From Candidatus Promineifilum breve (lineage in GTDB: Bacteria > Chloroflexota > Anaerolineae > Promineifilales > Promineifilaceae), in NCBI RefSeq assembly GCF_900066015.1, contig NZ_LN890655.1:2706726-2770725 (forward strand): a stretch of DNA of 64,000 bases, written 5' to 3'. Under the pieces are notes generated by a model. That model had not been told where the DNA came from and did no database searches. It was given only the letters and a program-made list of their open reading frames with translations. The number at the start of each line of letters is the position of its first letter. Positions within the stretch are counted from its first letter, which is position 1. Of this stretch, positions 29,052-62,479 are shown one piece after another. Both the position numbers and the translations under genes were made by a program.

Positions 29052-29154
29052 GGGGCGGGTTGGTAATCCGCCTCGGCGGTTGTAGGGCGGGTTGGTAACC
29101 CGCCCCCGGCGAATAAACGATATTGAAGAGGGGCGGGTTGCCAACCCGCCCTAC
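29052..29154. repeat. GGGCGGGTTGGTAACCCGCC repeat, three units
   Basis: Three copies of a self-complementary GGCGGGTTGG(T/C)AA(C/T)CCGCC unit, the last one inverted relative to the first, ending CCGCCCTAC. It fills the space between the divergent pullulanase and DUF123 genes. In frame it would extend the pullulanase N-terminus, but the signal peptide and RBS argue against that. Confidence 0.85.
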
Positions 29155-47859: not shown

Positions 47860-47960
47860 GATGGGTTGGCAACCCGTCTCTTGATAATGGCTATGTAGGG
47901 CGGGTTGGCAACCCGCCTCTTCAATTAGAGGCTTAGGGGCGGGTTGCCAACCCGCCCTAC
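47856..47960. repeat. GGGCGGGTTGGCAACCCGCC repeat, three units
   Basis: Three self-complementary units GGGTTGGCAACCC (the first degenerate) with the last in inverted order, bounded by GTAGG and CCTAC. It lies within the rpmF-fabD gap and contains the rpmF stop codon. Confidence 0.85.
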
Positions 47961-52356: not shown

Positions 52357-53382
52357 ATGCTTGAGGAATTAGAACAACAGTATGCAGCGGCGGCGGCGGC
52401 GCTGGCGGCGGCCGAGGGGCGCGAGACGCTGGCGGCCTGGCACAGCGCCACGTTGGGCAAGAAGGGCGGCATCTACCTGCTGACGCGCAACATGGGCGCG
52501 CTCGGCCCGGACGAGCGGCCCGCCTATGGCCGGCGGCTGAACGAGGTCAAGGCCGAACTGGAAGCGGCCTATGACATGAAGCTGGCCGCGGCCGAGGCCG
52601 ACGAACTGGAGGCGCAGATCGCCACCGGGGCGCTCGACGTGACCCTGCCCGGCCGTCAGCCGGCCACCGGCCGGCTCCACGTGATCACCCAAACCCTGCG
52701 CGACATCTACCGCGTCTTTGGCGACATGGGTTTCCAGGTCTACCGCAGCCGCGACGTGGAGACCGACGAGGTGAACTTCGAGCTGCTCAACTTCCCGCCC
52801 CACCACCCGGCGCGGGAGATGCAGGACAGCTTCTATACCACCGCCGAGGGCGTCATCCTGCGCACCCACACCAGCGGCGGCCAGATTCGGGCCATGCGCG
52901 AACAATACCCGGAGCCGATCCGTGTCGTCTTGCCGGGCATGTGCTATCGCAACGAGCAGGTGACGGCCCGCAGCGAGATGCAATTCACCCAGGTCGAACT
53001 GCTGGCCGTGGGCGACGACATCTCCTTTGCCGACCTGAAGGGCACGCTGACCGAATTCGCCCGGCGCATGTTCGGCGCCGACCGGCAGACGCGCTTCCGG
53101 GCCAGCTACTTCCCGTTCACCGAGCCGAGCGCGGAGATGGACATCAGCTGCTTTCTGTGCGGCGGCGCGGGCTGCAACATTTGCAAGTACACCGGCTGGC
53201 TGGAGATTCTGGGCTGCGGCATGGTGCACCCCACCGTGCTGCGCAATGGCGGCTATGACCCGGAAAAGTACTTCGGTTTTGCCGCCGGTATGGGCCCGGA
53301 GCGGATCGCCATGCTCAAATATGGCATCGACGACATCCGGCAGTTCTGGGCCAATGATTTGCGCTTCCTGGGACAATTCTAA
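52357..53382 (+). CDS. pheS: Phenylalanyl-tRNA synthetase alpha subunit
   Basis: A 341-residue class II synthetase alpha chain. N-terminal coiled coil (LEELEQQYAAAAAALAAAEGRE), then motif 2 (VLPGMCYRNEQVTARSEMQFTQVE), a Cys-rich insertion SCFLCGGAGCNICKYTGWLE (C-x2-C..C-x2-C, possibly zinc), motif 3 FAAGMGPERIAMLKYGIDDIR. GGGAGAGGG precedes the ATG. Length is standard. Expression is probably controlled by the upstream attenuator. Confidence 0.96.
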   Translation: MLEELEQQYAAAAAALAAAEGRETLAAWHSATLGKKGGIYLLTRNMGALGPDERPAYGRRLNEVKAELEAAYDMKLAAAEADELEAQIATGALDVTLPGRQPATGRLHVITQTLRDIYRVFGDMGFQVYRSRDVETDEVNFELLNFPPHHPAREMQDSFYTTAEGVILRTHTSGGQIRAMREQYPEPIRVVLPGMCYRNEQVTARSEMQFTQVELLAVGDDISFADLKGTLTEFARRMFGADRQTRFRASYFPFTEPSAEMDISCFLCGGAGCNICKYTGWLEILGCGMVHPTVLRNGGYDPEKYFGFAAGMGPERIAMLKYGIDDIRQFWANDLRFLGQF

Positions 53383-53385
53383 CAA

Positions 53386-53481
53386 GCGCAGGGGGGCAGG
53401 GGAGCAGGGAGGCAGGGGTGAAAGAGACGCTCGATAACGGCTCTTTCTCCCCCGCTCCCCCGCTCCCCTGCTCCCCTGCGC
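53386..53481. repeat. GCAGGGGAGC palindromic repeat, both arms
   Basis: Left arm of GCAGGGG(G/A) units, right arm of CCCCCGCTCCCCTGC units, around GAAAGAGACGCTCGATAACGG. It lies between pheS and pheT and ends just before the pheT RBS region. Confidence 0.85.
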
Positions 53482-53511: not shown

Positions 53512-56064
53512 ATGCGCGTACCGTTATCGTGGCTAAGAGAATACGTTGACATCGACCTTTCCATCGAGGAAGTGGCCCAGTTGCTGACCAACGCCGGGCT
53601 GGAGGTCGAGAGCATCAGCCGCACCGGCCTGCCGGGCGCGGCGTTGGAGTGGGATCGCGAGCGGGTCGTGCTCGGCCGCGTCCTGCGCGTGGAGCCGCAC
53701 CCCGACGCCGACCGGCTGGTGCTGGCGACGGTCGATTATGGCGCGGCCGAGCCGAAGGTCGTCGTCACCGGCGCGACCAATCTGTTCCCCTATCTCGGCC
53801 GCGGCGACCTGAGCGGCGAGCAACTCTACTCCCCGCTGGCGCTGGAAGGGGCCACCCTCTACGACGGCCACAAGGACGGCTTCGTCAAGACCAGGCTGAA
53901 GGGCCGTCCCCTGCGCGGCATCTACAACGATGCCATGCTGTGTTCGGAGAAGGAGTTGGGTATTAGCGAGGAGCATGAGGGCATCATTCTCATGTCTCGT
54001 AGGGGTGATCTTCCAGATCACCCCGGTGAACTGGAAGTTCACCGCTACGAGGCGGGTAGGCCCCTGCAAGACGTACTGGGCGATGCCGTGCTGGAAATCG
54101 CCATCCTGCCCAACATGGCCCGCGCCACGTCGATCCTGGGCGTGGCCCGCGAGTTGGCGGCGCTGACCGGGGCGGCATTCCGGCCGCCAAGCTACGAGGT
54201 CGGCATGGACGGCCCGCCGGTCGACGGCCGCGTGGTCATCAGCACCGACGAGCCGGAACTGAACCCGCGCTTCGTGGCCCTGCTCATCGAGGGCGTGCAG
54301 CAGATCCCCAGCCCGTACTGGATGCAATACCGCCTGCGCCAGGCCGGGCAGCGGCCGATCAACGTCGTGGTCGATATCAGCAACTACGTCATGCTGGAGG
54401 TCGGCCAACCCAACCACACCTTCGACTACGACGTGCTGCGCCGCCGCGCCGACGGCTACGCCCCCGGCGGCCCCATCCATATTCACACCCGCCTGCCCCA
54501 ACCGGGCGAGACATTGACCACGCTCGATGGCGCGACCCACAAGCTGGAGCCGTACAACATTCTCGTCACCGACCCGGCCGGCAACCTGTCCGTCGGCGGC
54601 ATCATGGGCGGCCTGGAGAGCGAGATCACCGCCGCAACCAGCAACGTATTGCTGGAGGCGGCGGCCTGGAACTTCATCAACATCCGCCGCAGCGCCAACG
54701 CGCTCGACCTGCACACCGAGGCCGGCTACCGCTTCAGTCGCGGCGTCCATCCCAGCCTGGCCCTGCTAGGGGCGCGGCGGGCGGCCGAGCTATTGCGCCA
54801 ATTGGCCGGCGGCACGGTGGCCCAGGGCATCATCGACGCCTACCCCAAGCCGCCCGCGCCGGTCGTGGTTGACCTCGACCCGGTTTACGCCCGCAAGCTG
54901 AGCGGCCTCGACCTGCCCGCGGCCGAGATGGCGGCCATGCTGGAGCGGCTGGAGTTCGCCGTGGAGATGCGCGGCGACCGGCTGCGGACCACCACGCCCG
55001 ACCACCGTATGGACGTGGAGGGGCCGCACGATCTGGTGGAGGAGATTTGCCGCCTCTACGGCTACGATCGCGTGCCCAATACGCGCCTGGCCGACACGCT
55101 GCCGCCCCAGCGCGGCAATATCACGCTGGAGCGCGAGGAGCGCGTGCGCGACGTGCTGGTCCGGTTGGGGCTGCAAGAGGTGTGGAGCTACCGGTTGACC
55201 TCGGCCGCCCGCGAGGCGCGCCTGTTGCCCGGCGGCCCGGCCGATGAGCGCCCCTACGTGACGCTGAGCAACCCGCCCGCGCCCGACCGCAACGTCATGC
55301 GCCACAGCATCCTGGCCTCGGCGCTGGAGGCCACGGCGGCCAACAGCCGCCACGCCGCGCGCATGGCCCTGTTCGAGATCGGCGAGGTCTATCTGGCGGG
55401 CGAGGACGAACTGCTGCCCGACGAGTTGACCCGGCTGGCGCTGGTGCTGACCGGGCGGCGGGCGGCCGACTCGTGGGCCGACGGCAACGCCGCCACCTTC
55501 GACTACCTCGATCTGAAGGGCATCCTCGACGCCCTCTTTGCCGACCTGCACGTGGCCGTGTCGTTCGAGGCGGCCCGCCACCCGACCTATCGCCCCGGCC
55601 GCACGGCCCGCATTCTCGTCGGCGAGCGGCAGATCGGCGTGATGGGCGAGCTGCATCCCGGCGTGGTCAAGGGCTTCGACGTGCGCGGCGAGCGCGGGCA
55701 GCCGGTGCTGGCCGCCGATATCGATCTGGCCGCGCTGTTGCCGCTCATCCCCGACCATTACCGCTATACGCCGCTGCCGGCCTACCCGCCGGTGCGCGAA
55801 GACCTGGCCCTGGTGGTGGACGCGGGCTTGCCGGCTGCGGCCGTGGCCGCGGCGTTGCGCGCTGCCGGCGGCGCATTGCTGCGCGACGTGGCCCTGTTCG
55901 ACGTGTACGAGGGCAGCCAGCTACCGCCGGGCAAGAAGAGCCTGGCCTATCACCTGACCTTCCAGGCCCCCGACCGCACCCTGACCGACGGCGACGTATC
56001 GAAGCAGCGCGGCCGGCTACTGAAGCTGCTGGAACAGCAACTCGGGGCGAAATTGCGAGAGTAA
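53512..56064 (+). CDS. pheT: Phenylalanyl-tRNA synthetase beta subunit with repeat insertion
   Basis: An 850-residue beta chain. MRVPLSWLREYVDIDLSIEE at the start, tRNA-binding OB domain (about 39-160), B3/B4 editing domain, B5, catalytic-like core, and the C-terminal ferredoxin-fold anticodon domain (PPVREDLALVVDAGLPA). Residues about 162-183 (SRRGDLPDHPGELEVHRYEAGR), just after SEEHEGIIL, replace a usual shorter linker and are encoded by a palindromic element (53996-54051). GGAG lies 8 nt before the ATG at 53512; an upstream ATG has no RBS. Confidence 0.95.
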   Translation: MRVPLSWLREYVDIDLSIEEVAQLLTNAGLEVESISRTGLPGAALEWDRERVVLGRVLRVEPHPDADRLVLATVDYGAAEPKVVVTGATNLFPYLGRGDLSGEQLYSPLALEGATLYDGHKDGFVKTRLKGRPLRGIYNDAMLCSEKELGISEEHEGIILMSRRGDLPDHPGELEVHRYEAGRPLQDVLGDAVLEIAILPNMARATSILGVARELAALTGAAFRPPSYEVGMDGPPVDGRVVISTDEPELNPRFVALLIEGVQQIPSPYWMQYRLRQAGQRPINVVVDISNYVMLEVGQPNHTFDYDVLRRRADGYAPGGPIHIHTRLPQPGETLTTLDGATHKLEPYNILVTDPAGNLSVGGIMGGLESEITAATSNVLLEAAAWNFINIRRSANALDLHTEAGYRFSRGVHPSLALLGARRAAELLRQLAGGTVAQGIIDAYPKPPAPVVVDLDPVYARKLSGLDLPAAEMAAMLERLEFAVEMRGDRLRTTTPDHRMDVEGPHDLVEEICRLYGYDRVPNTRLADTLPPQRGNITLEREERVRDVLVRLGLQEVWSYRLTSAAREARLLPGGPADERPYVTLSNPPAPDRNVMRHSILASALEATAANSRHAARMALFEIGEVYLAGEDELLPDELTRLALVLTGRRAADSWADGNAATFDYLDLKGILDALFADLHVAVSFEAARHPTYRPGRTARILVGERQIGVMGELHPGVVKGFDVRGERGQPVLAADIDLAALLPLIPDHYRYTPLPAYPPVREDLALVVDAGLPAAAVAAALRAAGGALLRDVALFDVYEGSQLPPGKKSLAYHLTFQAPDRTLTDGDVSKQRGRLLKLLEQQLGAKLRE
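53996..54051. repeat. Three-stem palindromic element inside pheT
   Basis: Outer arms CTCGTAG / CTACGAG enclose two perfect hairpins: GGGGTGATCT-TCC-AGATCACCCC (54002-54024) and GGTGAACT-GGA-AGTTCACC (54025-54043). The loops are complementary too (CTTCCAG and CTGGAAG). The element is read in frame. Confidence 0.9.
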
Positions 56065-62381: not shown

Positions 62382-62479
62382 GTAGGGCGGGATGGCATCC
62401 CGCCTTCCGGGTTGTAAGGCAGGATAGTATCCCGCCTGTCAGGGGGGAGAGCAGAGGGCGGGATACCATCCCGCCCTAC
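62382..62479. repeat. GTAGGGCGGGATGGCATCCCGCC repeat, three units
   Basis: Three GGCGGGAT(G)-centred self-complementary units bounded by GTAGGG and CCCTAC. It is the GGATGGCATCC variant of the repeat at 29052 and 47856. With the two preceding elements it makes three different repeats in a row between MalG and the GH57 gene. Confidence 0.85.

What the first reader, a model, noticed from the sequence alone, without database searches (positions are those of the whole stretch)
53996..54051. Palindromic three-stem element translated inside pheT
An element with outer 7-bp arms and two perfect inner hairpins, whose loops are also complementary, lies in frame within an essential tRNA synthetase gene, right after the OB domain. 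It adds about 15-22 residues to a linker. This recalls Rickettsia palindromic elements, in which mobile palindromes are kept inside genes as extra peptide.
Basis: partly seen in the sequence, partly recalled or inferred. Interest (0 to 1): 0.75.

Follow-up and report, generated by a model that had tools for sequence, protein, structure and literature searches.

The report
Mobile hairpin repeat translated inside pheT
A pair of small mobile hairpin repeats, normally found between genes, has landed in frame inside a disordered loop of an essential tRNA-charging enzyme and is read as about 17 extra amino acids; this kind of insertion is already known, but here the same loop holds different repeat DNA in sister species.

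Summary
The element is real. Window 53996-54051 is a head-to-head pair of GTAG-tagged REP hairpins (CTC-GTAG-hairpin, inverted hairpin-CTAC-GAG), read in frame in the only pheT found in this genome. Its REP family has 135 pattern hits here (control 17) but only 0-10, at control level, in each of 39 relatives. It has the RAYT signature: 133 of 135 copies are GTAG plus a perfect stem with a 3-4 nt loop, with compensatory stem changes, and a gene above NCBIfam's RAYT cut-off is flanked by these REPs. pheT holds the only copy clearly interior to a conserved gene. No relative has the segment: most have a 5-12 residue loop, while all six PheTs of the window's genus (Promineifilum) have 15-40 residues there, four of them built from unrelated dispersed heptad or octad repeats. 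AlphaFold gives the loop pLDDT below 50. Novelty is low; the repeated filling of one linker by different repeat families is the more interesting part.

The parts
53996..54051 (+). whole element: head-to-head dimer of GTAG-REPs with CTC/GAG flanks, in frame in pheT (codons 162-180)
53996..53998 (+). CTC flank: preferred flank of the REP family; CT at -3/-2 in 34 of 138 REPs against 5-8 at other positions
53999..54002 (+). GTAG tag of the first REP
54002..54024 (+). first REP hairpin, 10-bp stem, loop TCC (overlaps the last G of the tag and the first base of the second hairpin)
54024..54044 (-). second REP hairpin, inverted, 9-bp stem, loop TCC on its own strand
54045..54048 (-). GTAG tag of the second REP (CTAC on the + strand)
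54049..54051 (-). CTC flank of the second REP (GAG on the + strand)
53512..56064 (+). pheT, phenylalanine--tRNA ligase subunit beta, the host gene

Best explanation
The segment is a compact head-to-head dimer (BIME/REPIN arrangement) of a GTAG-tagged REP family that expanded in this genome of the Promineifilum genus. Inferred mechanism: the HUH/Y1 transposase RAYT (gene at C1:556103-556753) recognises the single-stranded GTAG-hairpin, cuts at a nearby C|T and moves the dimer to new sites. Nearly all surviving copies lie between genes, presumably because insertions inside genes are removed. This copy survived in the only pheT because it is stop-free in the frame used, its net length kept the frame, and it landed in a disordered linker after the OB-like tRNA-binding domain that tolerates length change. 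The encoded peptide SRRGDLPDHPGELEVHR is most likely a tolerated, near-neutral addition. Shown: family, dimer structure, RAYT association, in-frame location, absence in relatives, loop variability. Inferred: transposition by this RAYT, the cut site, neutrality.
For: REP pattern 135 hits in the own genome against control 17, and 0-10 in each of 39 relatives. 133 of 135 have GTAG plus a perfect stem of at least 6 bp and a 3-4 nt loop, with several covarying stems. 44 head-to-head dimers of 50-136 nt, the pheT copy the shortest. RAYT NF047646 81.6 bits, cut-off 80, with REPs of this family on both sides. CT enriched at -3/-2, as known for TnpA_REP cutting (PMC8266576 passages). Segment absent from relatives. 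Linker pLDDT below 50 at model residues 164-175, mean 88.4, and the most length-variable place of PheT. One PheT match in a 99.96% complete genome.
Against: No same-species empty site was available, so insertion is inferred from relatives at 83% identity or less. The RAYT score is only just above its cut-off. The nearest relative's loop aligns somewhat better than shuffles (p 0.018), so an older event is possible. In 10 of 28 loops ending in Tyr a CTAC already stands at this place, so part of the right end could be ancestral. Neutrality was not tested.
Confidence: 0.85

Rival explanations
1. The element is kept because it works: as mRNA the very stable hairpin slows the ribosome or protects the transcript at the boundary after the OB domain, or the peptide modulates PheRS.
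For: Very stable RNA fold, -37.7 kcal/mol, z -7.6. All six PheTs of the genus have a lengthened linker of 15-40 residues.
Against: Sister species fill the same linker with unrelated, non-palindromic repeats or a plain 15-residue loop, so neither the hairpin nor the peptide is conserved. The loop is predicted disordered.
Confidence: 0.1
2. The insertion is older than the split from the nearest relative (L051/L158), whose loop is a decayed remnant of the second REP.
For: L051 has GGLETRLYKAG against GELEVHRYEAG in the window; DNA alignment score 15.5 against a shuffle mean of 5.8, sd 4.4, p 0.018.
Against: That genome shows no REP expansion (1 hit, 68% complete), the p value is weak and from mononucleotide shuffles, and the window copy is still perfectly paired.
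Confidence: 0.1
3. Rickettsia palindromic element (RPE-like): a mobile palindrome that spreads preferentially by in-frame insertion into genes.
For: A palindrome translated in frame inside a conserved gene.
Against: GTAG tag instead of CGTC; RAYT association, which CGTC repeats lack according to PMC3733652; only 1 of 135 copies clearly interior to a gene.
Confidence: 0.02
4. A chance palindrome in GC-rich coding DNA.
For: Two other places in the window reach a similar arm match (25 of 27).
Against: Exact core copies elsewhere in the genome, z near -8, absent from relatives.
Confidence: 0.01

Closest known systems
GTAG-REPs / BIMEs with RAYT (REPtrons), Di Nocera et al. 2013 (PMC3733652) and PMC8266576
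   Same: GTAG tag, perfect stem with short loop, head-to-head dimers and tandem clusters, RAYT gene flanked by the same repeats, mostly intergenic, TAG of the tag used as stop codon by neighbours, occasional in-frame dimers inside genes including tRNA synthetases (X. oryzae, E. litoralis, S. alaskensis as named in that paper).
   Different: Stem and loop family seen here only in this genome; host gene pheT in a Chloroflexota species. The term pheT is not in that paper's main text; its supplementary list of targets was not readable here.
Rickettsia palindromic elements (RPE-1, RPE-4, RPE-6)
   Same: Palindrome kept in frame in genes as extra peptide.
   Different: RPE-4 and RPE-6 carry a CGTC tag and no known transposase (PMC3733652); many copies are in genes there, one of 135 clearly so here.
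IS200/IS605 elements such as IS608 (partly recalled; passages in PMC8266576)
   Same: Terminal hairpin with a tetranucleotide guide, single-strand transposition by an HUH/Y1 enzyme.
   Different: No transposase gene inside this element; it is a non-autonomous dimer.

Membership tests
GTAG-REP / BIME | GTAG tetranucleotide at one end of the hairpin | tested here: met
   Both halves carry it, GTAG 53999-54002 and CTAC 54045-54048
GTAG-REP / BIME | stem 5-13 bp, loop 2-20 nt | tested here: met
   10 bp and 9 bp stems, 3-nt loops; 133 of 135 family copies have a perfect stem of at least 6 bp and a 3-4 nt loop
GTAG-REP / BIME | many dispersed copies | tested here: met
   135 hits against control 17
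GTAG-REP / BIME | head-to-head dimers predominate | tested here: met
   44 head-to-head dimers, 17 of them 59 nt long
GTAG-REP / BIME | mainly between genes | tested here: met
   119 of 135 outside called ORFs; 15 of the other 16 at ORF 5' ends
GTAG-REP / BIME | associated with a RAYT gene | tested here: met
   C1:556103-556753, NF047646 above cut-off, REPs on both sides
GTAG-REP / BIME | moved by the RAYT | not testable with these tools
   needs biochemistry; CT enrichment in the flanks is indirect support
Rickettsia palindromic elements RPE-4/RPE-6 (CGTC-REPs) | CGTC tag | tested here: not met
   tag is GTAG
Rickettsia palindromic elements RPE-4/RPE-6 (CGTC-REPs) | no transposase gene among the repeats | tested here: not met
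   a RAYT gene is flanked by the same repeats
Rickettsia palindromic elements RPE-4/RPE-6 (CGTC-REPs) | many copies in frame inside genes | tested here: not met
   1 of 135 clearly interior
RAYT (for the gene at C1:556103-556753) | match to NCBIfam REP-associated tyrosine transposase over its cut-off | tested here: met
   81.6 bits, cut-off 80
RAYT (for the gene at C1:556103-556753) | HUH motif | tested here: met
   NHVHIVL in the translation; the catalytic tyrosine was not assigned

The most novel reading that the evidence does not exclude
Across the Promineifilum genus one linker of PheT acts as a recurrent landing and retention site for dispersed repeat DNA of different origins (a GTAG-REP dimer, a GACGAAT heptad, a GAGCAGGG octad), each turned into disordered peptide of an essential enzyme: a natural record of repeat-to-protein conversion, possibly with some use for a longer linker, since all six genus members examined have one.
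Probability: 0.45. Interest if true: 0.55.

Novelty: new member of a known kind. Interest (0 to 1): 0.4.

Why it matters
It is a clean case of a mobile repeat that became protein in a single-copy essential gene, with the transposase gene, the repeat population and sister-species alleles all in hand. The genus offers a small natural experiment on how intergenic repeat DNA enters coding sequence: one site, six species, at least three repeat types. It also adds a REP/RAYT system in Chloroflexota that looks specific to one species.

Tried and rejected
Rickettsia-type element: rejected on tag, transposase association and distribution. Chance palindrome: rejected. The CTAC of a conserved Tyr codon as the insertion target looked attractive (10 of 28 loops ending in Tyr), but after reading that GTAG acts as a guide and cuts fall at C|T I no longer prefer it; it stays open. 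The other two Y1 transposases over Pfam's cut-off (L080, L081) have no GTAG hairpins nearby, and a weak third match at C2:955973 (L238) has only 6-bp candidates. No solved structure matches the RAYT by sequence. Foldseek only confirmed the PheT fold. Paper searches for a palindrome or repeat insertion in pheT found nothing relevant.

Rows dropped: 82 loci were given, 4 gave no match and identical ones were merged, leaving 56 distinct loops; the remaining loci (L207-L237 except L209, L212 and L214, mostly Clostridia) were not given to it. In one search, 2 of 46 rows (length 0, adjoining dimers) were dropped. The second REP family was not tested for position in genes, apart from two of its three dimers in the window (before its crash). 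One search failed on a too strict regular expression and was replaced; one search crashed and was not repeated.

Full report
What is there. Window 53996-54051 reads CTC-GTAG-hairpin-inverted hairpin-CTAC-GAG. The inner hairpins are perfect, 10 bp and 9 bp, with 3-nt loops TCC and GGA; the two halves also pair with each other over 27 nt at 89%. As a single strand it folds far better than shuffles. It lies in frame in pheT (53512-56064), codons 162-180, and encodes SRRGDLPDHPGELEVHR. The genome (5.03 Mb, 3 contigs, 99.96% complete) gives one PheT match, so this copy is very probably the working one.

Copies in the genome. The 19-nt hairpin core has four exact places: pheT and three in tandem at C2:732752-732877. 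The pattern GTAGGN{2,4}ANCTTCC has 135 hits in the own genome against 17 for the reversed control, and 0-10 in each of 39 relatives, at the level of their controls. Their positions come, and all 135 were read with flanks. 133 of 135 have a perfect stem of at least 6 bp next to GTAG with a 3-4 nt loop. The commonest stems are GTGGAGCT (40), GCGGAACT (35), GTGGAACT (29) and GGGGAACT (9), with rarer GGTGAACT, GGTCATCT, GGGTGATCT and GTTGAACT, each with its matching 3' arm: compensatory change around a constant centre. The usual arrangement is a head-to-head dimer; of 44 found, 17 are 59 nt long and the pheT copy is the shortest at 50 nt.

Transposase. A 217-residue protein at C1:556103-556753 matches NCBIfam NF047646 (REP-associated tyrosine transposase, 81.6 bits, cut-off 80) and Pfam Y1_Tnp. 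It has REPs of this family on both sides, and its own stop codon is the TAG of a REP's GTAG. Of 11 RAYT loci scanned, the own one included, 9 had a GTAG hairpin with a stem of at least 8 bp close to the gene, mostly with a stem sequence of its own. The other two Y1 transposases over the Pfam cut-off have none nearby.

Flanks. Over 138 REPs (slightly relaxed pattern) CT stands at -3/-2 before GTAG in 34, against 5-8 at other positions; after merging identical flanks it is 21 of 106 against 5-8. Published work on TnpA_REP reports cuts at C|T guided by GTAG (PMC8266576, passages only). The stretch between C|T and A|G is 54 nt, a whole number of codons; as one length in three would fit, this is suggestive only.

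Where the copies lie. A simple codon-usage gene caller put 16 of 135 inside ORFs. Fifteen of these are at 5' ends, where a plausible start follows the repeat, for example a lipoprotein signal in L087 and L144 (my judgement). The pheT copy is the only one clearly interior. In 22 of 135 the TAG of GTAG closes a frame open for at least 100 codons upstream; the two other frames are open that far in 16 and 4. The dimer is stop-free in four of six frames; both closed frames begin with the TAG of the tag.

Relatives. The segment is absent from every related PheT examined. Of 56 distinct loops, 49 have 5-12 residues; the seven long ones (15-40) are the six of the window's genus, the window itself included, and one from another genus. 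Three of the five other genus members carry the name Promineifilum in their records. They hold different DNA here: a GACGAAT-type heptad in L052, L053 and L054, a GAGCAGGG-type octad in L053 and L055, and a plain 15-residue loop in L051. Both repeats are dispersed in the own genome too, with 91 and 183 matches against control 0. Within PheT this is by far the most length-variable place: 32 columns against 5 and 5 elsewhere inside the protein in the genus, and a range of 34 against at most 7 at other sites in 35 sequences. AlphaFold gives pLDDT below 50 for model residues 164-175 (add 1 for numbering from the start Met), against a mean of 88.4.

Against my reading. No same-species empty site was available. 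The nearest relative's loop aligns with the element somewhat better than shuffles (p 0.018), so an older insertion is possible. In 10 of 28 loops ending in Tyr a CTAC already stands where the element's CTAC is, so part of the right end could be ancestral. The RAYT score is close to its cut-off. Most relatives are fragmented assemblies, which may under-count repeats. Neutrality of the insert is inferred.

Known or new. Di Nocera and colleagues (PMC3733652; I saw the abstract, sections 5, 14, 15 and 16, the first part of 17, and passages) describe GTAG-REPs in several phyla including Chloroflexi, head-to-head dimers, the TAG of the tag as stop codon of neighbours, RAYT association, and intragenic dimers encoding 20-30 residues, with tRNA synthetases of three Proteobacteria among the targets. 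They also suggest that such insertions may be neutral because they lie in flexible linkers or loops. The term pheT does not occur in that main text; its supplementary list of target genes was not readable here. This finding is therefore a new member of a known kind. What I did not find in print, in the searches, is the repeated filling of one linker by different repeat families in sister species.

Noticed in passing
window 29082-29154, 47895-47960, 62382-62479: Head-to-head dimers of a second GTAG-REP family, GTAGGGCGGG(T/A)TGG(C/T)A(A/T)CCCGCC, with 111 pattern hits in the own genome and 0 in the control. No RAYT was matched to it.
   Followed up: partly
L052-L055 and L072, pheT linker after the OB domain: Sister species, and one species of another genus, carry different low-complexity repeat DNA translated in the same PheT linker.
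   Followed up: partly
window 53380-53481; also 13402, 21555, 56916: Octad GCAGGGGA-type repeats between genes, some as inverted pairs; one such pair stands directly upstream of pheT, and the same octad lies inside pheT of L055 and L053.
   Followed up: partly
L087:1382-1647 (C1:1484009-1484274): Seven REPs, six of them in a near-regular array of about 40-nt units, stand directly upstream of a predicted lipoprotein gene and are open in its frame.
   Followed up: no
L080:900-2150 (C2, near 284376): Other short palindromes (such as GTGGGATAAATCCCAC, AACCGGCTGAAGCCGGTT and GGCGGGTTTGAACCCGCC) crowd around an IS200/IS605-type transposase gene, without a GTAG tag.
   Followed up: no
22 of 135 REP hits, for example L129:1570, L157:1554 and the RAYT gene itself: The TAG of the GTAG tag closes the upstream reading frame (open at least 100 codons), a use already reported for REPs in PMC3733652.
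   Followed up: partly
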